64,000 nt of DNA. Origin: Cytophagales bacterium Alg240-R148. GTDB lineage: Bacteria; Bacteroidota; Bacteroidia; Cytophagales; Cyclobacteriaceae. This document shows, piece after piece, positions 33,081 through 43,061 of the stretch. The stretch's first letter is position 1, and every line of letters starts with the position of its first letter. Under the pieces are notes generated by a model. It worked only from the letters and a program-made list of their open reading frames with translations, had not been told where the DNA came from and ran no database searches. The DNA is taken from assembly GCA_900537185.1 (NCBI GenBank), contig LS999828.1:186001-250000 (forward strand), given 5' to 3'. The position numbers and the translations under genes are program-made.

Positions 33081-33986
33081 TCAATATATGGTACTGCTCT
33101 TTTTTTGAAAAGAGAACAAGTTCCAATCTACTCTAAAGCTCAACTCGTGGGTGTTCAATGGTAAACCGGAAGGTGGCTTTGTAGCCCATTCATAATAGTA
33201 CATGAGGGTCATTGAGTCCATCAACCGCATACCTGCCGATGCCTGGTAGGCATCCAACGACCGCGTTCCTACACCAGCCCAAAGCACATTTTTAAAGAGA
33301 AAATTACCATTTACTTCCCAATCCATTTTACTTCCCAATCCGTAGTTTACCATTGCTGTTGGTTTGAAAACAATTCTGTCCTTGTCACCAAATATTTTGG
33401 CTGCATATCCATAGATATGCTGGCCCATAATAGCTTCACCGTCTTTTCCTTTGACAGGCATTATAGAAGGCATGGACAAACCCAAAATAAAGGTATTGTT
33501 GCTGTACAACAATCCGGCACCAAAATTTAATCCTTGGCTGTTTTCATCGCTGTGCTGAAGCCTGGTATCGTCTTGGTGTTCCAGTGTAAGCAATTGGTAA
33601 TCTGTCTTCATTTGGTTGTAACCAGCGTTTACGCCAAGCGCTAAGGTTCCATTTCTTCCTCTAATGCGATAGGCATAAGAAGCATTGATGGCAGTCATTT
33701 TATTGACTCCTATTTGATCCATTACCAACCTCAACCCAGCTCCCGCATTATTTTTTGCAAACGAAGATTGCATTGACAACCATTGTGTTTCTGGTGCCCC
33801 CGGAACGTTATTCCATTGTTGTCGACTACCAACTGCTACAACAGCCTGCTCAGCATATCCAACTTGGGCTGGGTTGATTAGCGACAAATCTTGCCAAAAA
33901 CTATTTCCATAGGGTGCATACTGTGCTTTTGCGCTATAGGAAAGTAAACATGTCAGTATAAAAGATGTAACAATAATATGCTTCAT
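33081..33986 (-). CDS. PorP/SprF family type IX secretion-associated outer-membrane protein
   Basis: A 301-residue exported barrel-type protein: a signal peptide (about 1-21, ending AKA-Q), then the family start PYGNSFWQDLSLINPAQVGY (the INPA motif of PorP/SprF), followed by strand-rich sequence ending in a hydrophobic strand. PorP/SprF proteins help the type IX secretion system display particular partner proteins. The gene starts 4 bp after the stop of the PKD/T9SS-sorted protein, the usual arrangement for a dedicated substrate/PorP pair. It is the last gene before a terminator. Confidence 0.93.
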   Translation of the reverse strand: MKHIIVTSFILTCLLSYSAKAQYAPYGNSFWQDLSLINPAQVGYAEQAVVAVGSRQQWNNVPGAPETQWLSMQSSFAKNNAGAGLRLVMDQIGVNKMTAINASYAYRIRGRNGTLALGVNAGYNQMKTDYQLLTLEHQDDTRLQHSDENSQGLNFGAGLLYSNNTFILGLSMPSIMPVKGKDGEAIMGQHIYGYAAKIFGDKDRIVFKPTAMVNYGLGSKMDWEVNGNFLFKNVLWAGVGTRSLDAYQASAGMRLMDSMTLMYYYEWATKPPSGLPLNTHELSFRVDWNLFSFQKKSSTIY

Positions 33987-33990
33987 AGTA

Positions 33991-35775
33991 TTAATTTTTT
34001 ATAAATAAGTACCCTACAATTGGTTCGGTATTGTTGCCCAATGATATTTGGTAATAGTAATTGCCATCCGGTAATTGTTTGTTATCTGCATCTTTGCCTT
34101 CAAACTTCACTACGTTGTTATCATATCCTTTTTTATCGAACACAATGGATCCAAACCGGTCCAACACTACTACTTGATTGTCAGAAAATTTTTCAATATT
34201 GCTTATGTTAAAGAAATCATGTTTTCCGTCTTGGTAAGGAGTAACTATGTTGTAGATGGTCAACTCTCCTTGTTCTCCAGAAGAAAGTACCACTGCCTCC
34301 ACTTCTATCAATTCAGACAAACACCCTTCCAAGCTTTCCGCTTCTACCTGAAATACTTTTGTTTCATCAATACTCGCAAATAAAATAGCTGCCCGCTCAT
34401 TGGGTATCAAATCAAATGAGCCGCTATTGCCTTCATACCAATTGTAGGCCGCGTCTGTCGCATTAAGAACGGAAAGCGTTACTTCCCCTGGTTCGTCAAT
34501 TGTTACATCCTCTACTTCTGGCAAAGCGGGAATGCCATAAACACCATAGTCCACTACTACACTATCCAAACAACCATCGTCGTTTGTTACTGTTAGCCTT
34601 GCATTGTATACATTCGCACTTAAATTATCGATAGAGAATTGAGCCTCAGTTGCATCTGGAATCCCGTCGTTTTCTATATCCCAACTGTAGGTGCTGTTTG
34701 CATCTGTTCCTGTGGATTGGTTTTGAAAAGCAATAGCAGTCCCTTCACAACCACTCGAAATTGCCGCCAATGCAACAGGTGGAGCATTGATGGTTAGGGT
34801 TTGATTGGAAGTGCCGACACAACCTGACAAAGGTGTAACAAGGAGTGAGACAGTGTGGTCTCCTACCACATTAAAAGTATAACGCGCTTCCGTTGGATCG
34901 GTTGATTCTGGCAAACCATCCCCGTCAAAATCCCATTCGTAAGTTGCTCCGTCAACCATTCCTGTTGATGTATTTGTAAATACAATTTCTTGTTCTGAGC
35001 ACAAAAGGGTTGTATTAAAATCTACGTTGGGACCATCACAAACATCAATTAAATTTACCACAGTAGTGGACCAATTGTTTTGATCGTCCAATACCCTAAT
35101 ACCCAAAACATGCTGTCCTATAGCCAAGTTGCCAACATCCAAATCAATATCGAGGTCAACGGATGCAACGGGGGCGGCAAGGTTCTCCCGATTGGCAGCG
35201 CCAATACCTGGGTCTGTATCAATAAAAAACTCATACGCTACTAACAATGGGGCAATTAAAACCGCGGGTGGTGCAATAATGAAAGGCCGCGCTTCAGAAG
35301 TACCCCAATCGCCATTAGCGTCTTTAGTTCTAAAGTAAAGAAAATGCAAACCAGCGCTTAAACCTGACATATCTAGGCTCTCTATTTTATCAACAGTGAG
35401 ACCTGCAGGAATAGAAATAGAGGTTCCAGCTCCAAAACCCGGATCTATATCTATAAAATACTCCATTTCAGTTAAATTGGGTTGAGGAGGTAAAGTTGTA
35501 ACCGGTTGAACAATAAAAAATCGCACATCGGTCATGGACCAGTCTCCATTCGCATCTTTAGCTCTAAAATAAATGGCATGCAGCCCGTCTGAAAGCCCAG
35601 CGGTAGGCACAGTAAAATCAGCTTGAACGGACGGACCTGCTGCGATTGAAATGGCTGTACCGTTTCCAACACCTGGATCTATGTCCATAAAATATTCCAT
35701 CGATGTAATGTCCGGCTGGGCTACCCCGTGCATTGCATATACCACCAACAGAAATGTCGTTATATATTTATACAT
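33991..35775 (-). CDS. large surface protein with PKD domains and type-B gliding C-terminal sorting domain
   Basis: From the ATG at 35775 it has 594 residues and a normal signal peptide (MYKYITTFLLVV to VA-Q); the upstream start would overlap the previous gene by 47 bp. Order: three N-terminal repeats of the EYFxDxDPGxG type (about 25-240), two PKD domains with W-D-F-D-G-D-G and W-D-I-E-N-D-G (about 255-415), an Ig-like stretch, and a C-terminal domain (about 505-594) with the gliding-motility CTD pattern (YNIVTPYQDGKHDFFNISNIE, LPDGNYYYQI). It would be exported by T9SS and tethered at the surface. The PorP/SprF gene follows at 4 bp. Confidence 0.92.
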   Translation of the reverse strand: MYKYITTFLLVVYAMHGVAQPDITSMEYFMDIDPGVGNGTAISIAAGPSVQADFTVPTAGLSDGLHAIYFRAKDANGDWSMTDVRFFIVQPVTTLPPQPNLTEMEYFIDIDPGFGAGTSISIPAGLTVDKIESLDMSGLSAGLHFLYFRTKDANGDWGTSEARPFIIAPPAVLIAPLLVAYEFFIDTDPGIGAANRENLAAPVASVDLDIDLDVGNLAIGQHVLGIRVLDDQNNWSTTVVNLIDVCDGPNVDFNTTLLCSEQEIVFTNTSTGMVDGATYEWDFDGDGLPESTDPTEARYTFNVVGDHTVSLLVTPLSGCVGTSNQTLTINAPPVALAAISSGCEGTAIAFQNQSTGTDANSTYSWDIENDGIPDATEAQFSIDNLSANVYNARLTVTNDDGCLDSVVVDYGVYGIPALPEVEDVTIDEPGEVTLSVLNATDAAYNWYEGNSGSFDLIPNERAAILFASIDETKVFQVEAESLEGCLSELIEVEAVVLSSGEQGELTIYNIVTPYQDGKHDFFNISNIEKFSDNQVVVLDRFGSIVFDKKGYDNNVVKFEGKDADNKQLPDGNYYYQISLGNNTEPIVGYLFIKN

Positions 35776-35782
35776 ACTATTT

Positions 35783-36889
35783 TTAATTTGAAGTTGCTTT
35801 GATTGTAATTTTAAGGGGTTCCCCTTCATTCAAATGTGCAGGAACTACCGTTTCAACTATTACCGGAATTGTTGTACCCTTGGGACTACCACCATTTTTC
35901 AACATAAATGGGAATGCTCCTCCCGTAGGCCCAATATCGGTTCCATCTGTTCCTCCATTTAATGCTGGAGATGTGGGATCAAGTCGCAAATCCAGGGCTT
36001 TATAATTATAGGTATAAGGATCTGAAATTACAGGAACATTTCCATACATCGGATCCGTGTACTCCAAGTTGCCTCCTCCATCAAAATTTTGTTGTGGATA
36101 CCCCAATGGAGGCATGGCACCACTTTCTGGAAAAGTCTGAAATGTCATGTTATTTGAAAAGGTGTTTAAGTCAAATGTACCTCCAGAGTAGATGGTATTC
36201 CGCCGGTAATAAATATTATTGAATACCAAACAGTTGTCAAGTGAACCCCAATCTCCTCTATTCGAATTTGGTCCATAACCCACAAATAAATTATTTTTTA
36301 TAACAGCATTGTTTCCTGCTGTAACCATTCTACCTACAGTGAAAATATTATTGGCTATAATGGTTCCAAAAACGTTTGCCGAAGGAAGGCCCACAACAGA
36401 ATAATCTCCTTGACCAGGATAGGAAAAGTTGATGCAATTAGACACTCTGATGTTTTCAATTCTATTCCAATACCCCCGTATTTGAGCAAAATGACAATTT
36501 TCAATGATGATATCGGAAAGTGTATAAGCAGAACCAGCGTTAATCCCTAATTGAATGTGTCGAACATTAGATATACCATTGATACGGGTTCCCGAAGCGT
36601 TGTATACATTGATTCTGTATACACTCGACACATTTGGAGATTCGGCATCCGGAAAAAGCCCAACTCCAACCAATGTAACCGGTGTATGAACTTCTACACT
36701 CCCATAAGAAGTTGGACTGGGAGCAACATATATACTGTCTCCAGGGTCAGCAGCGTCTAAAGCTTCCTGTAATGTAGGGTAAACATAGGCACCTTCTGGC
36801 GCGTTTGCATTATTATTGGCTACCCTAATCGTTTGCGCTTGAACTATAAAAGTTAAACCAATTAAGGCCATTGTAAGTAATAATCTCAT
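35783..36889 (-). CDS. secreted right-handed beta-helix protein
   Basis: A 368-residue exported protein with a signal peptide (MRLLLTMALIGLTFIVQA-Q). The start TIRVANNNANAPEGAYVYPT-LQEALDAADPGDSI is the usual N-terminal cap of parallel beta-helix proteins, and the body holds repeated N-x-I-I-x-N-x-x-F and VIKNNLFVG rungs. A D-G-T-D-I-G-P-T-G-G segment and a final I-K-A-T-S-N follow. It is 7 bp before the PKD protein gene and has a close paralogue upstream, so it probably belongs to one surface-protein operon. No catalytic residues are seen; adhesion or polysaccharide contact is possible. Confidence 0.85.
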   Translation of the reverse strand: MRLLLTMALIGLTFIVQAQTIRVANNNANAPEGAYVYPTLQEALDAADPGDSIYVAPSPTSYGSVEVHTPVTLVGVGLFPDAESPNVSSVYRINVYNASGTRINGISNVRHIQLGINAGSAYTLSDIIIENCHFAQIRGYWNRIENIRVSNCINFSYPGQGDYSVVGLPSANVFGTIIANNIFTVGRMVTAGNNAVIKNNLFVGYGPNSNRGDWGSLDNCLVFNNIYYRRNTIYSGGTFDLNTFSNNMTFQTFPESGAMPPLGYPQQNFDGGGNLEYTDPMYGNVPVISDPYTYNYKALDLRLDPTSPALNGGTDGTDIGPTGGAFPFMLKNGGSPKGTTIPVIVETVVPAHLNEGEPLKITIKATSN

Positions 36890-36991
36890 AAAATTTCAAC
36901 GTTTTATTATTTTCTCTAATTTTTAAATAGGGTGCTTTCTCCTATTAGACAACCGACTTTCAATTTTTAAACCGACTTGTTTTTGTGAAAA

Positions 36992-38113
36992 TTAATTGTT
37001 GGACTTTGCACTTATACTAATCGGAAGCACTTGGCCTTGATTTATTAAACCTGGCACAACTACTTCTTGAATGGTGGGAATATTAGTGCCAAATATTTTT
37101 CCTTCTAAATCTACTGTAAACGGAAACTGGCCACCAGTAGGCCCTATGTCGGTTCCATCAGAACCGGCATTTATTATGGCCGCCCCATCCACCGGAGTGA
37201 GGTCATTATTTGTAAAAGACCAAGCATAAAATGCAAGGGCCGTATAGCCCGGATCCGTTTCTATTATATTCCCACCGCCATCCAGATTTGCCTCTCCTCC
37301 CACTGGATCGGGTGGAAAATCTTGATATGCATCGTTCACATTAAAAGTAAGATTGTATGAAAATGTGTTTTTCTCAAAATAATCTCTTCCCCGAACAGGT
37401 TTGCCATAAAAAACATTGTTGCTGATAATGCAATTAACAACCGAACCAAAGGTGTAGTTACCAGAACCTTCTCCTGCCCCAATAAACAGGTTGTTCTTTA
37501 TTTGTGTATAGTTGCCTGCATTAATAAGCGGAAGGTCCGGTCTGATCCAAAAAGTATTTTCCATTATATTATTGGCAATAACACAGTTTTGTAATTTTGT
37601 ATCCGTAGCAAGGGTAATGATATAAGTATTGGCAGTATGGCTAACACAATTAGAAATACGGAGCCCATCGATGTTATTGGTAGTAGTATTTTGTACTATG
37701 CGCCCAAACCTACTGAACTCTATTACTATATCCGATAAAGTATATACAGGGCCAGTTCCGGAAGCCAAATTCGTTAAGACAATGTTCAACCCTCTAATGA
37801 CTGTACCGGAAGCTGCTGCAGTGTTTAAATCCATGCTATTAACATGCGAAGTATAATTGAAGGTTGTATTGGGGTTGTACCCTATTCCTTTAAAGGTTAA
37901 CTGTTTGTCCACAACAACGTCACCATAAGTAGTTCCACTTGGTATTACATGTATGATATCTCCTGCAGTTGCCGCATCTATTGCGTCTTGTAAACTGGAA
38001 AAAACATGGCTTCCCTCCGAGGCGTCTGCATTGTTGTTGGCTACCCAAATATTCTGTGCCAACCCTAATTGGACGGTGCCTAATAAGCCCATTAGTAAAA
38101 TAAATTTCATCAT
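36992..38113 (-). CDS. secreted right-handed beta-helix protein, paralogue
   Basis: A 373-residue protein with a signal peptide (about 1-19, ending LA-Q) and the same plan as the gene after it: IWVANNNADASEGSHVFSS-LQDAIDAATAGDIIHV at the start, beta-helix rungs in the middle, DGTDIGPTGGQFPF and a C-terminal V-x-P-x-x-I-x-Q-G-x-x-L-P-I-S-I-S-A-K-S. The two proteins are clearly homologous but strongly diverged. A gap of 102 bp separates them, with no terminator in it. It is divergent from the ECF sigma gene, sharing a 103-bp intergenic region. The role is probably surface or extracellular. Confidence 0.85.
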   Translation of the reverse strand: MMKFILLMGLLGTVQLGLAQNIWVANNNADASEGSHVFSSLQDAIDAATAGDIIHVIPSGTTYGDVVVDKQLTFKGIGYNPNTTFNYTSHVNSMDLNTAAASGTVIRGLNIVLTNLASGTGPVYTLSDIVIEFSRFGRIVQNTTTNNIDGLRISNCVSHTANTYIITLATDTKLQNCVIANNIMENTFWIRPDLPLINAGNYTQIKNNLFIGAGEGSGNYTFGSVVNCIISNNVFYGKPVRGRDYFEKNTFSYNLTFNVNDAYQDFPPDPVGGEANLDGGGNIIETDPGYTALAFYAWSFTNNDLTPVDGAAIINAGSDGTDIGPTGGQFPFTVDLEGKIFGTNIPTIQEVVVPGLINQGQVLPISISAKSNN

Positions 38114-38216
38114 CGTTTTGTAGTTTTGTGTTTAATGCTTATTTCGTTGTTTGTTAAAAGGTTAACAGCGCATTGAAAAAAAAATGTTTACCTTTTTTCA
38201 TTTTTAGTAATAAGCA

Positions 38217-38762
38217 ATGACAGAACAGGAAAAAGCAGCCACGATAGAAAGCCTAAAACGGGGGGATGAAAAAGCCTTTAAGGCCATCTATTTGGATACT
38301 AAGAGTCAATTTATACCATGGATTAAAACACAATATGGTTTAAACGAAGACAATGCCCTGGACCTCTATCAATCTGCATTTTCAGTTTTTTATGAAAAAG
38401 TGGAGGGTGGTAGTTTTAATTTTAGTCAATCGGCTCCAGCTACTTATATTATTGCGATTGGCAAAAATTTGGCGTTAAAAACATTGAAGCAAAATTCAAA
38501 AGTATTGGACCCAAAAGAATTAATTTTCCAACATTACACACAGGAAGATGGGGAAGAAAAAAAGGTTTTACTTAAGAAAATGCTGCTGGGTTTGGAACAG
38601 TTAAAAGAACCGTGTAAAACATTGTTGGAGATGTACTATTACAAAAAAATGTCTTTGAAAGAAATTGGAAATAAAATGAACCATGGTAACGCCAATGTAA
38701 CCAAGACACAAAAATCCAGGTGTTTAAATTATTTGAAAAAATTAATAAAAAAGGACAAATGA
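38217..38762 (+). CDS. ECF-type sigma-70 factor
   Basis: A 181-residue sigma factor with region 2 (about 10-95, including NALDLYQSAFSVFYEKV and a T-Y-I-I-A-I-G-K-N-L segment) and region 4 (about 120-175, LEQLKEPCKTLLEMYYYKKMSLKEIGNKM followed by N-V-T-K-T-Q-K-S-R-C). No region 1 or 3 is present. Its stop overlaps the next gene start (ATGA at 38759-38762), a membrane TPR protein that probably acts as its partner or anti-sigma factor. It diverges from the beta-helix gene at 38113 across 103 bp. Sequence-specific targets cannot be read from the window. Confidence 0.92.
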   Translation: MTEQEKAATIESLKRGDEKAFKAIYLDTKSQFIPWIKTQYGLNEDNALDLYQSAFSVFYEKVEGGSFNFSQSAPATYIIAIGKNLALKTLKQNSKVLDPKELIFQHYTQEDGEEKKVLLKKMLLGLEQLKEPCKTLLEMYYYKKMSLKEIGNKMNHGNANVTKTQKSRCLNYLKKLIKKDK

Positions 38763-39466
38763 ACTTCGAAGAAAACAAAGACCTTTTTATTAGGGGTGCA
38801 TTAAATGAAGAAGAAACCTTAAAGTTTCTAGATTCGTTAGATAAGGCTCAAAAAAAAGAAATAGAGGAAGCAATGGAGTTATCTGCGGCTTTTCAAATTA
38901 AAAAAGCCGAGTCCAACTTAAAAAAGATCCAACAATATGAATCTAAGAAAACCAAGGTTGTTGCATTTCGGGCATGGGCAGCTGCAGCGGCTAGTTTGTT
39001 GTTGTTGGCCGTTTTTATTTGGATCTCCAAAGACTCCGGAGCAGAGAAGCTTGCCAACCAGCATTTTTCTCCCTACCCCAACATAGCGCAACCAACCATG
39101 CGCAATGCTTCCGAAGCAGCAAAGGACCCAGGTTTTCTTGCATACGATGCAAAGGACTACCACTCTGCCTTAAATGCATTTAACAACAAAGATTCTGAAT
39201 TAGACACCATTGCTTTCTATAAAGTCAATTGTTTGTTGGCCCTTAAAGAGCCACAACAAGCTTTAGCACTTCTCGAAATGCTCAATCAAAAAGAAAGCAC
39301 TGCTTTTATACTTCCTAGAAAATGGCTGGAGGCCCTTATTATGCTAATGAACAAAGAATACGATCAAGCTATAATTGCTTTGAACCAATACTTTGCTTCT
39401 GGAAATGCCATTGAAAAACAAAAAGCCAAAAATCTAATTAAAGAAATTGAACAACTCAGGCCTTAG
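38759..39466 (+). CDS. membrane TPR protein, probable anti-sigma partner
   Basis: I take the ATG at 38759 (235 residues), which overlaps the sigma-factor stop; an upstream frame extension has no support. A cytoplasmic N-terminus (about 1-65, acidic then basic, FIRGALNEEETLKFLDSLD) resembles the N-terminal part of Bacteroidota anti-sigma-type membrane partners. One membrane helix (67-90) follows, then a periplasmic TPR-like region (about 130-235, ALNAFNNKDSEL and KEYDQAIIALNQYF). The position directly after an ECF sigma gene is typical of anti-sigma factors, but no zinc-binding anti-sigma motif is present. Its end overlaps the convergent CHAT gene by 11 bp. Confidence 0.75.
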   Translation: MNFEENKDLFIRGALNEEETLKFLDSLDKAQKKEIEEAMELSAAFQIKKAESNLKKIQQYESKKTKVVAFRAWAAAAASLLLLAVFIWISKDSGAEKLANQHFSPYPNIAQPTMRNASEAAKDPGFLAYDAKDYHSALNAFNNKDSELDTIAFYKVNCLLALKEPQQALALLEMLNQKESTAFILPRKWLEALIMLMNKEYDQAIIALNQYFASGNAIEKQKAKNLIKEIEQLRP

Positions 39467-42400
39467 ATTTCAATCGTTGTCTTCGTTTGTAAATAGCAAA
39501 GGCAAATACCCCTAAAAACATTACAAATAGCGCATTTTGTATCCATAGACTGTGGTTATTTAGTTGAATGGTTTGGTTTTGTCCATAGTACATCCAGCTC
39601 CCCCATATAAACGGATTGTCGTACAGGTCTGGGTAGCGATTGAGCCAAGCCATTCTCGTATTTTTGAGGGCATGGGATGCCGTTTGTCCATCGGCTATTT
39701 TTGTGTAATACAAATCAAAAAATTCTGCTGTGGCTTGGTCCGACACTTCCCATCTAGCCGAGAGCAGGTTTTGACTCCCTGCAAAAGCAAATGCTCTATT
39801 CAGACTCATCATGCCCTCTCCCCCTAAAAATTCATCTTTACCAGCACTACATGCAGAAAGCGTTAGCAGCAAAGTCCGAAAATTCAAATTATAAATCTCT
39901 TCTGCTGATAAGGCGTGTAGCCCTGTGGAGTCAGAAAAGTAAAGGGCATCAATACCAGCGTACTCGGCACCAGTATGGGTTGCAAGGTGAACGATTGATT
40001 TCCCATCGGCCTGGTCAATAAAATTATGAACAGAAGCTTCCTGCCCAACAAAAGACTCAATATTAAACTTTTCTGACAAAGTAGCTACTTCCACTGCTGC
40101 AGATGGCAATAGTTTAAAACGGGTACCCTCAAAACCCGGAGCAAATGCTACTCCCTCGCTCAATTCAAAATCGGGTTCCACAGAACGCACTATCCAATTA
40201 CAAGAAAAAGAATAACTCACGGCCACTTCTTCAAAAAGATACCGCTCCTGCTTTAGCAAATCGAAGGGTACTTTGTACAAGATCCCATCGGGGATCACAT
40301 ACATATTATCAATTTCTACTGGTATGCTACTAGGCAATAGTGCGCCATAGAGTTGTGCAGATAATGAAGTAAATTGGCTTTGGTTTCTTGTAAGTATGGC
40401 ATTGTTTAACTGCTCTACAGCAGCACTTTTTACAGCATTAATATTGTGCATAGTACAGCTTTCTTTGCGGATGTCAAACCGAACCACAAAACCATCCAAC
40501 TCCTGATAAAAAAGAACCAAATCTCCATTGTTTAAAGACGATTGGAATTCTTTCAATTCTAAGTTTGGCATTTCATACCGCAGTTGGTAATACTGCGCAT
40601 GGTTTTCCTTAAATATTTGCACAACAGAATCTATTTTCCCCCTTACCTCAACCAACGCATCTACTTCTTGTAAGTCTTTTGATTTATAGCGGTTCCAGAG
40701 CAATTGCTCCTGGATAAGAAGTGCCCGTTCTGTTTCCAACAAATGTGGTGGAACTCCGGCAAAAGATTGCAATCGGGTTTCATTTTGTGCCAACTTTAAC
40801 TTTTGCGCCTTTCCGTACTCCGACCAATACCAAGCCTTTTCGATTAAGTCTTTTGAAGGCTGTTTGTTGTGGCGTGACACAAAAGTCTGCACACAAGATT
40901 TAAAAAAATCATTTATTTTGTTCAGCACAAAATGGGAAGTCTTGCCTCTGGTAAAAGAGGCATTTATTATCTTGATTACCTCTACACCATACTTCATAAT
41001 GGGTTCTATTACCAGAGCACCTTCCCCTTTTTGACTTACCAGTTTTAAGTTAAAAGATACAATTTCCAGCAACAACAACTTTTTAAACGTTAATGCCGGA
41101 TTGGGATACCCGTTGGGTAAATGGTGTTGGCTTATGTTGTGGTAGGCCTGTTGCATCCATTTATCGGATTCCTCCAGTTTCCCTAAATTAAAATAGAGCT
41201 GTGCCATTTCTAAACTCACTTCGGCCTTTTGAGGATGCGCTCCTTTAAATTGACGGTCTAAATAGTGGATGGACTTTTTGAAATAGACTACTGCTGCGTC
41301 CTTTTCATGCAGCCCAACCAACACTTGAGCCATTGCCCAATTCGACTCAAAACTTTCGTTTCCATCGGGCTTATCCATAAGAATTTCCTGGCTCTTTTGA
41401 ATATAAATTAATGCCGAGTCATACTCTTTTTTGTGTGCCAATACTTGCGCAATTTTTGTATAGGCAGAAGCCGTAAAAGGATGGCTTGGCCCGTTGGCTC
41501 CTTCCATTTCCTTTAATTCCTTTTTGTGGTACTCGAGCGCTTGGTCAAAATTACCCACCTGCATGGCAGTTGTACCTACTTGGGCATAAGAATGCCCTAA
41601 TGTGGTATGGGGAGAAGCCAGCAAAGCCTGCTTCGATTGTAGGCCTTGTTGCATATAATCCCAAGCTTTCTCCAACTCCCCCATCTCGGCATATACACTT
41701 GCAATGTTGTTGTAGCTGGAACCTATGCTGCTATGGGTGGGGTCCATGGAACGGAGCTTAACTTCAAGCCCTTTTTCAAAGTATTCAATCGCCTCCGCAT
41801 AATATCCTTTGTAATACCAAACTGCTCCCAAATTATTAATAGAAGAACCATAATCGGGGTGTCCAATTAAATCTAAAGATTCAAAAATACCTTCGGCTGT
41901 GCTATAATGCACGATGGCTTGGTCATAGTCCGACTTTAAAAAATAGGCATTGCCTATTATTACCGATGTTTTACCGATCGAACGCAAATTGCTGACACTA
42001 TCAATTAATGATACCTCAATCGCCTCGTTCAATATGCTAATGGCCGTATCGTACTCGGTAGTTCTGTAATATACCTGACCAATATTGAGCAAAGAATTGG
42101 CTAACAACCCTGCACTTGCATTTGCAGACTTCCTTAATTCGTAAGCTTCTGTAAAAAAGTCAATTGCTGCCGCGTATTGGTTGTTTTCTAAATTGGCCTT
42201 GCCGATATAGTTTATTTGAGTAGATTTTTCTATTACAAATTCATTGGGAACTTCGTAACCGCGCAGGTAGTCCAAAGCTTTTTTATAATTCCCCTTGTTG
42301 ATGTAACATTCCGCAATTTTATTTTTTGCTTGGTAATGTCTATTGGACGATTCGTCCAATAGAAGGTACCGTTCAAAACCAGCGATTGCGCTATCGTACT

Positions 42401-42506
42401 TAGATTGGACTCTGTTTAATTCGGCTTTGTCAAAAATGGCATCTTGTGCTTGTACATTGGCCCACAACAGCACAGCCCACAAAACCAGTAGGTGTTTTTT
42501 TATCAT
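39456..42506 (-). CDS. TPR-CHAT protein (caspase-like peptidase domain with C-terminal membrane helix)
   Basis: From the ATG at 42506 (1016 residues; a TTG two codons upstream is not used): signal peptide (about 1-21, ANVQA-Q), about nine to ten TPR units (about 25-470, NIGQVYYRT, NNLGAVWYYKGYY and similar), a helical linker, and a CHAT domain (about 715-980). Both catalytic residues are kept: H844 in VHLATHTG and C886 in LSACSAG. A membrane helix (about 990-1008) and a basic tail (YKRRQRLKSKA) end it. CHAT proteases are cysteine peptidases related to separase and caspases. The signal peptide and C-terminal helix place the TPR/CHAT part outside the cytoplasm. It is convergent with the sigma/anti-sigma pair. 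Confidence 0.9.
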   Translation of the reverse strand: MIKKHLLVLWAVLLWANVQAQDAIFDKAELNRVQSKYDSAIAGFERYLLLDESSNRHYQAKNKIAECYINKGNYKKALDYLRGYEVPNEFVIEKSTQINYIGKANLENNQYAAAIDFFTEAYELRKSANASAGLLANSLLNIGQVYYRTTEYDTAISILNEAIEVSLIDSVSNLRSIGKTSVIIGNAYFLKSDYDQAIVHYSTAEGIFESLDLIGHPDYGSSINNLGAVWYYKGYYAEAIEYFEKGLEVKLRSMDPTHSSIGSSYNNIASVYAEMGELEKAWDYMQQGLQSKQALLASPHTTLGHSYAQVGTTAMQVGNFDQALEYHKKELKEMEGANGPSHPFTASAYTKIAQVLAHKKEYDSALIYIQKSQEILMDKPDGNESFESNWAMAQVLVGLHEKDAAVVYFKKSIHYLDRQFKGAHPQKAEVSLEMAQLYFNLGKLEESDKWMQQAYHNISQHHLPNGYPNPALTFKKLLLLEIVSFNLKLVSQKGEGALVIEPIMKYGVEVIKIINASFTRGKTSHFVLNKINDFFKSCVQTFVSRHNKQPSKDLIEKAWYWSEYGKAQKLKLAQNETRLQSFAGVPPHLLETERALLIQEQLLWNRYKSKDLQEVDALVEVRGKIDSVVQIFKENHAQYYQLRYEMPNLELKEFQSSLNNGDLVLFYQELDGFVVRFDIRKESCTMHNINAVKSAAVEQLNNAILTRNQSQFTSLSAQLYGALLPSSIPVEIDNMYVIPDGILYKVPFDLLKQERYLFEEVAVSYSFSCNWIVRSVEPDFELSEGVAFAPGFEGTRFKLLPSAAVEVATLSEKFNIESFVGQEASVHNFIDQADGKSIVHLATHTGAEYAGIDALYFSDSTGLHALSAEEIYNLNFRTLLLTLSACSAGKDEFLGGEGMMSLNRAFAFAGSQNLLSARWEVSDQATAEFFDLYYTKIADGQTASHALKNTRMAWLNRYPDLYDNPFIWGSWMYYGQNQTIQLNNHSLWIQNALFVMFLGVFAFAIYKRRQRLKSKA

Positions 42507-42527
42507 CAACAATTATTATTTTATACT

Positions 42528-43061
42528 CTAAAAGGACTCGTACTTAAACTTCTGCCCACCAACCGAAGCTTCGTACATCAACCCTCCTTTTTGTGTTGTA
42601 AATACTGCAACCCCATCAATGTACTTAGCATCAAGTGAAGCACCTGCGGCAGCTGCTACCGCTGATAATTGAGCCGAAAACTCTAGTTTATTCCCTTTAA
42701 ACCGATCCATATCGGCCTTCTTTTCAAAAAAAACAACCTCCCTATAGGCTTGTCCTCCAGCCTGCAAACCAATACTTACTTGAGACAATTTGGCGGTGCC
42801 AATTTCGGCTCCTTTTTGAAAGACTATCCCATGGCCACTAGCTGCACCAACCCCAAGCCCGCCTTTGCCAACATTTGGAAATATGGCATAGCCATAAGCA
42901 GATGAAAAGAAAGTAGCTAGATCTGGGTCTTTTTTTAAAAAAGCAGCTTTTGCTTCTTTTGAATCTGCCTTAATTTCAGCTATTTTTTTGTCTGATTGGG
43001 CATTCGAATTTGCAGATATGCTCAAAACTAAGAAGACCAAAAAGTATTGTAAGTATTTCAT
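42528..43061 (-). CDS. SYLF/Ysc84 domain protein
   Basis: From the ATG at 43061 the product has 177 residues with a signal peptide (MKYLQYFLVFLVLSISANSNAQ); a TTG two codons upstream is rejected. The mature protein has AYGYAIFPNVGKGGLGVGAASGHG and a later LGA-like Gly/Ala stretch, the SYLF (Ysc84, DUF500) lipid-binding domain. Bacterial members are exported and their role is poorly known. It ends 21 bp before the CHAT gene start in the same direction, so the two may form an operon, placing a lipid-binding protein next to a membrane-anchored peptidase. Confidence 0.85.
   Translation of the reverse strand: MKYLQYFLVFLVLSISANSNAQSDKKIAEIKADSKEAKAAFLKKDPDLATFFSSAYGYAIFPNVGKGGLGVGAASGHGIVFQKGAEIGTAKLSQVSIGLQAGGQAYREVVFFEKKADMDRFKGNKLEFSAQLSAVAAAAGASLDAKYIDGVAVFTTQKGGLMYEASVGGQKFKYESF

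What the first reader, a model, noticed from the sequence alone, without database searches (positions are those of the whole stretch)
33081..43061. Candidate surface-signalling system: ECF sigma, membrane TPR partner, SYLF and TPR-CHAT peptidase beside T9SS surface proteins
Seen: an ECF sigma gene overlapping (ATGA) a one-helix membrane protein with a periplasmic TPR region. A SYLF/TPR-CHAT pair is convergent to it, with an 11-bp overlap of the 3' ends. The CHAT protein keeps H844 and C886. Divergent to the sigma gene are two beta-helix proteins, a T9SS type-B protein and PorP/SprF. Known: CHAT peptidases regulate partners by cleavage, and in type III-E CRISPR systems a CHAT protease cleaves a protein controlling an ECF sigma factor. 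Inference: the CHAT protein may cleave the membrane partner on an envelope signal and release the sigma factor to control the divergent surface genes.
Basis: partly seen in the sequence, partly recalled or inferred. Interest (0 to 1): 0.8.

Follow-up and report, generated by a model that had tools for sequence, protein, structure and literature searches.

The report
Protease-triggered sigma switch in Bacteroidota
A gene-control switch, its membrane-bound lock and a separase-like protein cutter sit side by side in this bacterium and in many relatives, and the DNA suggests that the cutter opens the lock so that the cell makes particular surface proteins.

Summary
The ECF sigma and its ATGA-coupled one-helix partner recur with a TPR-CHAT gene in 64 of 95 decidable loci. 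In a phylum sample of 296 genomes, 37 of 106 related sigma genes have CHAT within 6.5 kb, in several gene orders. CHAT keeps its His-Cys dyad in 63 of 63. The partner has a juxtamembrane loop whose Arg (R115 here) is kept in 57 of 64 CHAT-linked loci and 16 of 31 others. In one small group Met motifs replace it, and there CHAT loses Glu806, at the clan-CD S1-pocket position: 97 Arg loci have Glu/Asp, 11 Met loci Leu/Ser/Ala. That is only 1-2 evolutionary events. A promoter-like motif precedes sigma in 78 of 111 loci and the divergent gene in 32 of 79 (controls 39 of 707), but CHAT in 3 of 65. The divergent genes are often secreted, some with T9SS tails. Best reading: CHAT is the site-1 protease that cuts the membrane anti-sigma after R115. 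SYLF is not part of the module. No cleavage was measured.

The parts
38217..38762 (+). ECF sigma factor, 181 aa
   Evidence: the 111 comparison loci were chosen by similarity to it
38759..39466 (+). Membrane anti-sigma candidate: cytoplasmic N-terminus, one TM (res. 72-90), conserved linker, periplasmic TPR
   Evidence: relative next to sigma in 105 of 111 loci; weak anti-sigma match NF047528 E 0.0028, far below cut-off
39101..39103 (+). Codon of partner Arg115, proposed P1 of the cut (NIAQPTMR|NAS)
   Evidence: Arg at this column in 57 of 64 CHAT-linked, 16 of 31 unlinked and 9 of 10 undecided loci; function is inference
39456..42506 (-). TPR-CHAT peptidase, 1016 aa from ATG 42506, with N-terminal hydrophobic segment and C-terminal TM-like helix (985-1015)
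39582..40358 (-). CHAT domain (res. 717-975)
   Evidence: Pfam PF12770 128.8 bits
40089..40091 (-). Codon of CHAT Glu806, proposed S1-pocket residue
   Evidence: helix 803-814 after strand 785-790 in the model
39975..39977 (-). Codon of catalytic His844
   Evidence: invariant 63 of 63
39849..39851 (-). Codon of catalytic Cys886
   Evidence: invariant 63 of 63
38185..38214 (+). Promoter-like site of the sigma gene, TGTTTAC-N14-AGTAATAAG, 2 bases before the start codon
   Evidence: 13.4 bits with the family matrix; exact pattern match, by construction
38138..38167 (-). Matching outward-facing site for the divergent genes, TGTTAAC-N14-CGAAATAAG
   Evidence: only 4.7 bits with the family matrix
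36992..38113 (-). First divergent gene, protein without known domain; 34% identical counterpart divergent to a sigma gene of this family in L099
35783..36889 (-). Second divergent gene, related to the first
33991..35829 (-). T9SS type-B CTD protein with PKD/Ig domains
33081..33986 (-). PorP/SprF family outer-membrane protein
   Evidence: 161.2 bits
42528..43067 (-). SYLF/Ysc84 protein upstream of CHAT; not a conserved part

Best explanation
A cell-envelope signalling module. The 181-aa ECF sigma is held at the inner membrane by its co-translated partner, an anti-sigma with a cytoplasmic N-terminal part, one TM helix and a periplasmic TPR domain. The TPR-CHAT protein is a membrane-anchored periplasmic peptidase of the separase/Csx29 type. 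On an unknown envelope signal, probably sensed by its TPR part, it cuts the anti-sigma in the exposed loop about 25 residues after the TM, most likely after Arg115 (site-1 cleavage). The stub would then be removed by a general site-2 (M50) protease and cytoplasmic proteases. The freed sigma transcribes its own operon and the divergent secreted/T9SS genes from two outward-facing promoters. Shown by sequence: genes, conserved association, predicted topology, invariant dyad, conserved linker Arg, linker-pocket covariation, shared promoter-like motif. Inferred: inhibition, cleavage and its site, signal, site-2 step, regulon.
For: Association: CHAT within -150 to +3000 bp of the partner in 64 of 95 decidable loci, 62 convergent and 2 co-directional. 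Phylum sample (which includes the window's genome): 37 of 106 sigma matches in 23 of 64 genomes, as 14 downstream convergent, 7 downstream same strand, 15 upstream divergent, 1 upstream same strand. Partner relatives found in 20 of the 20 non-convergent regions fetched, of 23. Dyad 63 of 63. Topology: 96 of 102 CHATs with N-terminal hydrophobic segment, 96 of 102 with a C-terminal one; 109 of 110 partners with a TM. Arg at the R115 column in 57 of 64 CHAT-linked against 16 of 31 unlinked loci. Col. 806: Glu/Asp in 97 Arg-linker loci, Leu/Ser/Ala in 11 Met-linker loci; the only one of 343 compared columns without overlap; Glu in 34 of 34 distinct CHATs outside the linked sets. CHAT distances follow the partner's periplasmic part more than its cytoplasmic part after allowing for sigma (partial r 0.45 against 0.22). 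Motif over 12 bits: sigma 78 of 111, divergent gene 32 of 79, control genes 39 of 707, CHAT 3 of 65. Signal-like N-termini in 65 of 103 divergent genes against 44 of 141 controls. Model matches separase domain 5fby Z 26.5, Csx29 8eex Z 30.8.
Against: No experiment. Linker and pocket each changed only 1-2 times on the CHAT tree, so the pairing is clade-level; columns 961 and 922 separate the two groups almost as well as 806 (overlap 0.054 and 0.067). The separase P1-Arg Asp lies 41 residues after the Cys; the window has Ala927 there, so Arg specificity is not proved. 31 of 95 loci have the pair without CHAT in range, and 16 of these keep the Arg; the strict linker pattern is in 77 of 110 CHAT+ and 21 of 80 CHAT- partners. 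The sigma site of the window (13.4 bits) is one of 13 places over 12 bits in the 64-kb window, several of them higher and inside genes, and its divergent site scores only 4.7 bits. The anti-sigma role rests on gene order, topology and one weak match.
Confidence: 0.6

Rival explanations
1. CHAT binds the anti-sigma through TPR-TPR contact and controls it without cutting it; the linker is a docking or hinge segment.
For: Both proteins carry TPRs, and CHAT distances follow the partner's periplasmic part. In the Craspase work the N-terminal part of Csx30 can still bind sigma after cleavage (passages of PMC10028731 and PMC9729208).
Against: Dyad invariant in 63 of 63. The pocket-position residue changes together with the linker residue.
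Confidence: 0.16
2. CHAT cuts something else (a surface protein, a T9SS substrate, or the third gene found between partner and CHAT in some loci) and is merely a neighbour of the sigma pair.
For: CHAT is not under the sigma motif (3 of 65). 27 of 62 convergent loci have an extra same-strand ORF of 60 aa or more between partner and CHAT.
Against: CHAT accompanies this sigma-partner pair in several gene orders. In this genome the other four CHAT genes are not beside a Sigma70_r2 gene. The window has no third gene (11-bp overlap).
Confidence: 0.14
3. The partner is cut by other proteases (DegS-like or fused trypsin-like) and CHAT only modulates the response, as the CHAT-less forms suggest.
For: 31 of 95 loci have no CHAT in range. 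In five CHAT-less loci the partner is fused to a Trypsin_2 domain, 5 of 5 tested.
Against: Where the partner is fused or truncated the linker motif is, by eye, absent, as expected if the motif serves CHAT.
Confidence: 0.07

Closest known systems
CASP / Craspase: Csx29 (TPR-CHAT), Csx30, CASP-sigma of type III-E CRISPR
   Same: A TPR-CHAT peptidase beside an ECF sigma and its inhibitor; the authors support a model in which cleavage of the inhibitor relieves sigma (passages of PMC10028731). Fold match Z about 31.
   Different: None of the nine proteins scanned around the window's sigma gene matches a Cas family (no CRISPR-array search was made); predicted periplasmic and membrane-anchored; the partner is a TPR membrane protein with no match to Csx30 in the libraries used; the trigger is unknown, not target RNA.
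DdvA, transmembrane anti-sigma of Myxococcus xanthus with a CHAT domain (PDB 8rot, 8rw5)
   Same: Membrane CHAT protein tied to an ECF sigma; sequence match E 1.1e-9, Foldseek matches 8rw5 and 8rot; DdvS is active when DdvA is inactivated, signal unknown (passages of PMC4374960).
   Different: In DdvA the CHAT is part of the anti-sigma chain (from the PDB titles); here it is a separate gene, usually convergent in the window's relatives.
RseA/DegS-RseP type regulated intramembrane proteolysis
   Same: One-TM anti-sigma, periplasmic site-1 cut near the membrane (recalled); M50 proteases present in this genome.
   Different: The proposed site-1 enzyme is a CHAT cysteine peptidase, not a PDZ serine protease; the anti-sigma has a TPR domain.
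ECF54 sigma factors
   Same: CHAT proteins reported in the gene context, proteolytic control proposed (one passage of PMC8999054).
   Different: [quoted passage not shown] here a membrane partner is present. I could not compare the sigma sequences with an ECF54 model.
Separase
   Same: Protease-domain fold (5fby, Z 26.5, rmsd 3.2, 312 residues aligned) with TPR-like N-terminal part; cuts after Arg in an unstructured stretch (passages of PMC10317155).
   Different: The separase P1-Arg Asp (Cys+41) is not conserved here; different substrate and compartment.

Membership tests
CHAT peptidase (PF12770) | CHAT domain above gathering score | tested here: met
   128.8 bits, cut-off 24
CHAT peptidase (PF12770) | His-Cys dyad | tested here: met
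   H844/C886, invariant in 63 of 63
CHAT peptidase (PF12770) | Proteolytic activity | not testable with these tools
   needs an assay
ECF sigma factor | sigma70-ECF model above cut-off | tested here: met
   TIGR02937 48.9 bits, cut-off 42.9
ECF sigma factor | Own gene preceded by a two-block promoter-like motif | tested here: met
   78 of 111 loci over 12 bits, shuffled sequences 4.6 on average; matrix trained on these regions; window 13.4 bits, not unique in the window
Membrane anti-sigma factor | Coupled to its sigma gene, one TM | tested here: met
   ATGA overlap; 109 of 110 partners with TM
Membrane anti-sigma factor | Recognised anti-sigma domain | tested here: inconclusive
   NF047528 E 0.0028, 16.9 bits against a cut-off of 200; no Pfam anti-sigma match; Foldseek's 50 shown matches have no E <= 0.001 and the best ones are TPR domains
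Membrane anti-sigma factor | Inhibits the sigma factor | not testable with these tools
   needs an assay
Type III-E CRISPR CASP system | Csx30, Cas7-11 or other type III-E genes in the module | tested here: inconclusive
   PADLOC gives only a generic TPR model for CHAT and nothing for sigma, partner or SYLF; nine proteins scanned with Pfam, none Cas-like; whether PADLOC holds a Csx30 model was not checked and no CRISPR array was sought
RseA-like RIP substrate | Site-1 cut near the membrane, then site-2 cut | not testable with these tools
   R115 lies about 25 residues after the TM helix; two M50 proteases in the genome
ECF54 | Membership of the ECF54 sigma group | not tested
   no ECF group models at hand; only a passage of PMC8999054 seen

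The most novel reading that the evidence does not exclude
A widespread non-CRISPR class of Bacteroidota envelope signalling in which a separase-like periplasmic peptidase is the dedicated site-1 protease of a membrane anti-sigma, with two matched specificity classes: Glu806 enzymes that cut after Arg, and enzymes of a small group that lost Glu806 and cut after Met.
Probability: 0.48. Interest if true: 0.85.

Novelty: new variant of a known kind. Interest (0 to 1): 0.74.

Why it matters
ECF sigma factors are a major route by which Bacteroidota sense the envelope, and the proteases that open their anti-sigmas are, as far as I know, mostly unidentified. If right, CHAT peptidases, best known from CRISPR defence, have a common chromosomal role as envelope sensors, and the CASP arrangement would be one branch of a broader theme. 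The prediction is sharp: one Arg in the partner and one Glu in the enzyme can be mutated and assayed.

Tried and rejected
SYLF as a component: rejected. Defence system: PADLOC gives only a generic TPR match. D923 as the P1-Arg residue: dropped. I first took it for the separase D2151, but by spacing from the Cys it is the earlier Asp (Cys+37); Ala927 is at Cys+41. The separase spacing is recalled; the residue role is from passages of PMC9729208 and PMC10317155. CHAT as a sigma target: motif in 3 of 65, background; a same-strand upstream neighbour has it in 5 of 30. Beta-helix label for the two divergent genes: no library match.

Linker typing: the rule fixed gave on the 26 new loci 21 Arg/Glu, 2 undecided/Glu, 1 undecided/Leu, 1 Arg/Leu and 1 CHAT too short to align. 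By eye the two Leu loci carry Met motifs (GLPVKMS, GVPVLMS) and both undecided Glu loci have an Arg, so I loosened both patterns (Met pattern; Arg pattern by one more following residue and a longer stretch) for the final count. The test is therefore not fully blind. In one search two loci (L099, L215) have no residue at column 806 and are not in the 97 + 11; L215 is typed Arg there but looks Met-like by eye. The independent-pairs test has too few changes to reach significance. The loose linker pattern is permissive (52% of shuffled linkers match); the strict one is 77 of 110 CHAT+, 21 of 80 CHAT-, 11% shuffled (84 CHAT- partners, 4 shorter than 150 aa dropped; one locus, L115 = L211, is in the CHAT- set twice). 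R115 as 'invariant': true only for A6, a selection I made for the structure job that leaves out the Met-linker loci and holds 5 loci with no CHAT in range; on all 105 partners it is 57 of 64, 16 of 31 and 9 of 10. First count of CHATs outside the linked sets was 36; two genes were in it twice, so 34, of which 9 lie in a locus that also holds a sigma of the family (tandem or farther off). Of the 31 loci called CHAT-less, three (L075, L158, L169) hold a CHAT farther away.

Outside the window's family the pair often lacks CHAT: 52 of 78 newly counted pairs, although 13 of the 80 regions (L238-L250) had been chosen because one search showed CHAT there. The two-site pattern with up to 2 mismatches is expected 1.07 times in the window by chance, 28 of 100 shuffles having two or more, so the count alone is no evidence; what counts is that both are exact, adjacent and outward-facing, and the pattern was made from them. 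On checking, I lowered the main confidence from 0.62 to 0.60 and the novel reading from 0.50 to 0.48 because R115 is conserved, not invariant, and unlinked loci keep it in half of the cases.
Full report
WHAT IS THERE. The sigma gene 38217-38762 overlaps the partner (from ATG 38759) as ATGA. The partner and the CHAT gene overlap tail to tail by 11 bp. H844 and C886 are correct when CHAT is counted from ATG 42506. The partner model (mean pLDDT 88.1) has a helical N-terminal part, one helix 72-90 that fits the membrane span, a short helix 94-102, a loop, and TPR-like helices from 124. The CHAT model (mean pLDDT 80.7, pTM 0.75) has an N-terminal helical-repeat part, a caspase-type domain and a last helix 985-1015 that fits a membrane anchor. 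Foldseek's best matches are Csx29 and human separase; 8rw5 and 8rot, the transmembrane anti-sigma DdvA, rank 8 and 9. The second-look aligner gives Z 30.8 for Csx29 (8eex) and Z 26.5, rmsd 3.2, 312 residues for the separase protease domain 5fby.

CONSERVATION OF THE MODULE. I gathered 111 distinct loci by sigma similarity alone: the window, 40 regions from sigma hits in 98 relatives, and 80 named genome loci, less 10 duplicates. A partner relative follows sigma in 105 of 111. Of these 105, 64 have CHAT between -150 and +3000 bp of the partner's end (62 convergent, 2 same strand), 31 have none in that range although more than 4.5 kb is held (three of them have one farther off), and 10 cannot be decided because the contig ends. 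No other gene family comes close: the next is in 17 of 111 loci, at scattered positions. In a second sample, 296 genomes drawn evenly from the phylum (the window's genome and a few earlier relatives among them), 106 sigma matches at E <= 1e-15 lie in 64 genomes; 37 of them, in 23 genomes, have a CHAT match within 6.5 kb: 14 downstream convergent, 7 downstream same strand, 15 upstream divergent, 1 upstream same strand. The CHAT list was cut at its end, so this is a lower bound. I fetched 20 of the 23 non-convergent places and found the same partner next to sigma in 20 of 20. Association that survives changes of gene order is hard to explain by an inherited gene order alone. In this genome there are 5 CHAT genes and 38 Sigma70_r2 matches besides the window's sigma, and only this CHAT is beside a sigma gene. 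The association is not universal: in a class-wide set 52 of 78 new pairs had no CHAT within 6.5 kb.

THE PARTNER'S LINKER. Just after the membrane helix the CHAT-linked partners share a motif, roughly Y-x-x-Y-F-x-P-Y-P-N-x(6)-R-(G/S). The Arg column (R115 here) holds Arg in 57 of 64 CHAT-linked loci, 16 of 31 without CHAT in range and 9 of 10 undecided ones; in A1, 31 partners of the first set, it is among the columns conserved at 90% or more. In the model R115 lies in the loop between helix 94-102 and the helix from 124, in a block of lower confidence (mean 77). A strict form of the motif is in 77 of 110 CHAT-linked partners, 21 of 80 unlinked ones, and 11% of shuffled linkers. These rows are related, so I give no p-value.

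COVARIATION WITH THE ENZYME. In 9 of the first 84 sigma-partner-CHAT sets the Arg is replaced by Met motifs (PGLPxTMS and similar). Of 343 CHAT columns compared, one separates the two groups without overlap: position 806 is Glu or Asp in all 74 aligned Arg loci and Leu, Ser or Ala in the 9 Met loci; columns 961 and 922 come next with overlaps of 0.054 and 0.067. New loci gave 23 Glu loci, each with an Arg in the linker by eye, and 2 Leu loci, both with Met motifs by eye; my frozen pattern missed four of these and I loosened it afterwards. All together: 97 Arg with Glu/Asp, 11 Met with Leu/Ser/Ala, 2 unaligned. Among 34 distinct CHAT proteins outside the linked sets, 34 have Glu806, so Glu is the ordinary state in the sample and was lost only where the partner lost its Arg. 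In the model Glu806 is at the start of the helix that follows the first core strand, the place of the P1-binding residues of caspase 3 (Arg64), gingipain (Asp163) and, a little further along the helix, MALT1 (Asp365) (passages of PMC4626109 and PMC4357240). Against this: on the CHAT tree both traits change only twice, once if only well-supported branches count, so this is a clade-level change and not repeated coevolution; and the separase Asp for P1 Arg has no counterpart at the same spacing.

PROMOTERS AND TARGETS. Upstream of the sigma genes there is a two-block motif, GGGTTAC or TGTTTAC, 14-15 bases, then CATTAAG-like: 78 of 111 loci exceed 12 bits, against 4.6 on average in shuffled sequences. 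On the opposite strand, before the divergent gene, it is in 32 of 79, against 39 of 707 control genes and 5 of 30 upstream neighbours on the sigma strand; before CHAT it is in 3 of 65, that is, background. The matrix was trained on the sigma upstream regions, so their count is favoured; the other counts are not trained, though the divergent gene shares the intergenic DNA (read on the other strand). In the window the sigma site is 38185-38214 (13.4 bits); 13 places in the 64 kb exceed 12 bits, several of them higher, so position, not score, singles it out. The divergent site 38138-38167 scores only 4.7 bits in the family matrix but differs from the sigma site at two of the 15 fixed positions of the pattern, with the same spacing. 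A pattern covering both finds no third exact match in the 5.3-Mb genome and 8 more places with one mismatch (the pattern read backwards: 1). The -10-like block ends 2 bases before the sigma start codon, so the sigma mRNA may be nearly leaderless; in 46 of 78 loci with a site an ATG follows within 15 bases. Divergent operon genes of CHAT-linked loci have signal-like N-termini in 65 of 103 cases (first gene 37 of 49) against 44 of 141 control genes, by a simple rule of mine. In their last 250 residues 13 of 103 have the T9SS tail Por_Secre_tail and 2 have CHU_C; neither family is among the 25 most frequent in 103 of the 141 control genes. Another genus has a 34% identical counterpart of the window's first divergent gene at the same place, with the motif at 13.8 bits (L099).

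HOW IT PROBABLY WORKS. Sigma and anti-sigma are made together under sigma's own promoter. CHAT, expressed independently of sigma, sits in the periplasm on the same side as the partner's loop (96 of 102 full-length CHATs have an N-terminal hydrophobic stretch, 96 of 102 a C-terminal one, 5 of 102 an internal one). A signal switches it on; it cuts the loop after R115; general proteases finish the stub (two M50 proteases in the genome); sigma turns on itself and the secreted products next door. CHAT-less relatives show the anti-sigma is modular: five carry a Trypsin_2 domain in place of the TPR part (5 of 5 tested), and a few are short and sit in an operon with a penicillin-binding protein and a TPR protein. 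This fits a family in which the protease input has been exchanged.

WHAT IS KNOWN. Searches of the paper library for this combination (of the 607 papers only 20 were listed) gave the type III-E work (passages read), a review sentence that CHAT, carboxypeptidase and subtilase proteins occur beside ECF54 sigma factors (passage read), and, in the listings, no paper on this Bacteroidota module. The library lacks most subscription journals and holds no bioRxiv preprints. The DdvA structure is known to me here only from PDB titles; its biology from two passages. I therefore call the module a new variant of a known kind: CHAT control of an ECF anti-sigma, split over two genes, in the envelope, without CRISPR genes among those scanned.

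LIMITS. Everything is comparative. The host is probably a member of the Cytophagales (Cyclobacteriaceae in GTDB terms, recalled), inferred because genomes labelled 'same family' have contigs of the same length as named loci (for example Splendidivirga and Chryseolinea). Topology and signal peptides were judged by simple hydropathy rules.

Noticed in passing
L098, L104, L105, L106, L110 (partner genes): CHAT-less loci where the anti-sigma-like N-terminus and TM are fused to a trypsin-like (Trypsin_2) domain: an anti-sigma carrying its own protease domain.
   Followed up: partly
L081, L100, L164, L168, L174, L180: Sigma gene in an operon with a TPR protein of about 880 aa and a penicillin-binding protein of about 788 aa; in four of the six the partner is only about 100 aa long.
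   Followed up: partly
27 of 62 convergent loci, e.g. L117:11328-11756, L092:9587-10015, L124:11330-11527: A variable extra ORF between partner and CHAT, on the partner's strand; several small families, no Pfam match for the one tested (L117).
   Followed up: partly
window 38185-38217: The -10-like block ends 2 bases before the sigma ATG; in 46 of 78 loci an ATG follows within 15 bases, which suggests nearly leaderless sigma mRNAs.
   Followed up: partly
G000:C3:434866-435384: A second sigma gene of the same family elsewhere in this genome, with none of the five CHAT genes near it.
   Followed up: no
L179 (PBYL01000458.1): Record titled Thalassovita sp. (an alphaproteobacterium) carries this Bacteroidota-type sigma and partner; probably a misbinned contig.
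   Followed up: no
L134, L086, L092: Two CHAT genes beside one sigma pair.
   Followed up: no
CHAT column 922 (window numbering from ATG 42506): In the nine Met-linker sets this column is Asp (8) or Glu (1), against Asn or Ser in most Arg-linker sets; it may be a second specificity position.
   Followed up: no
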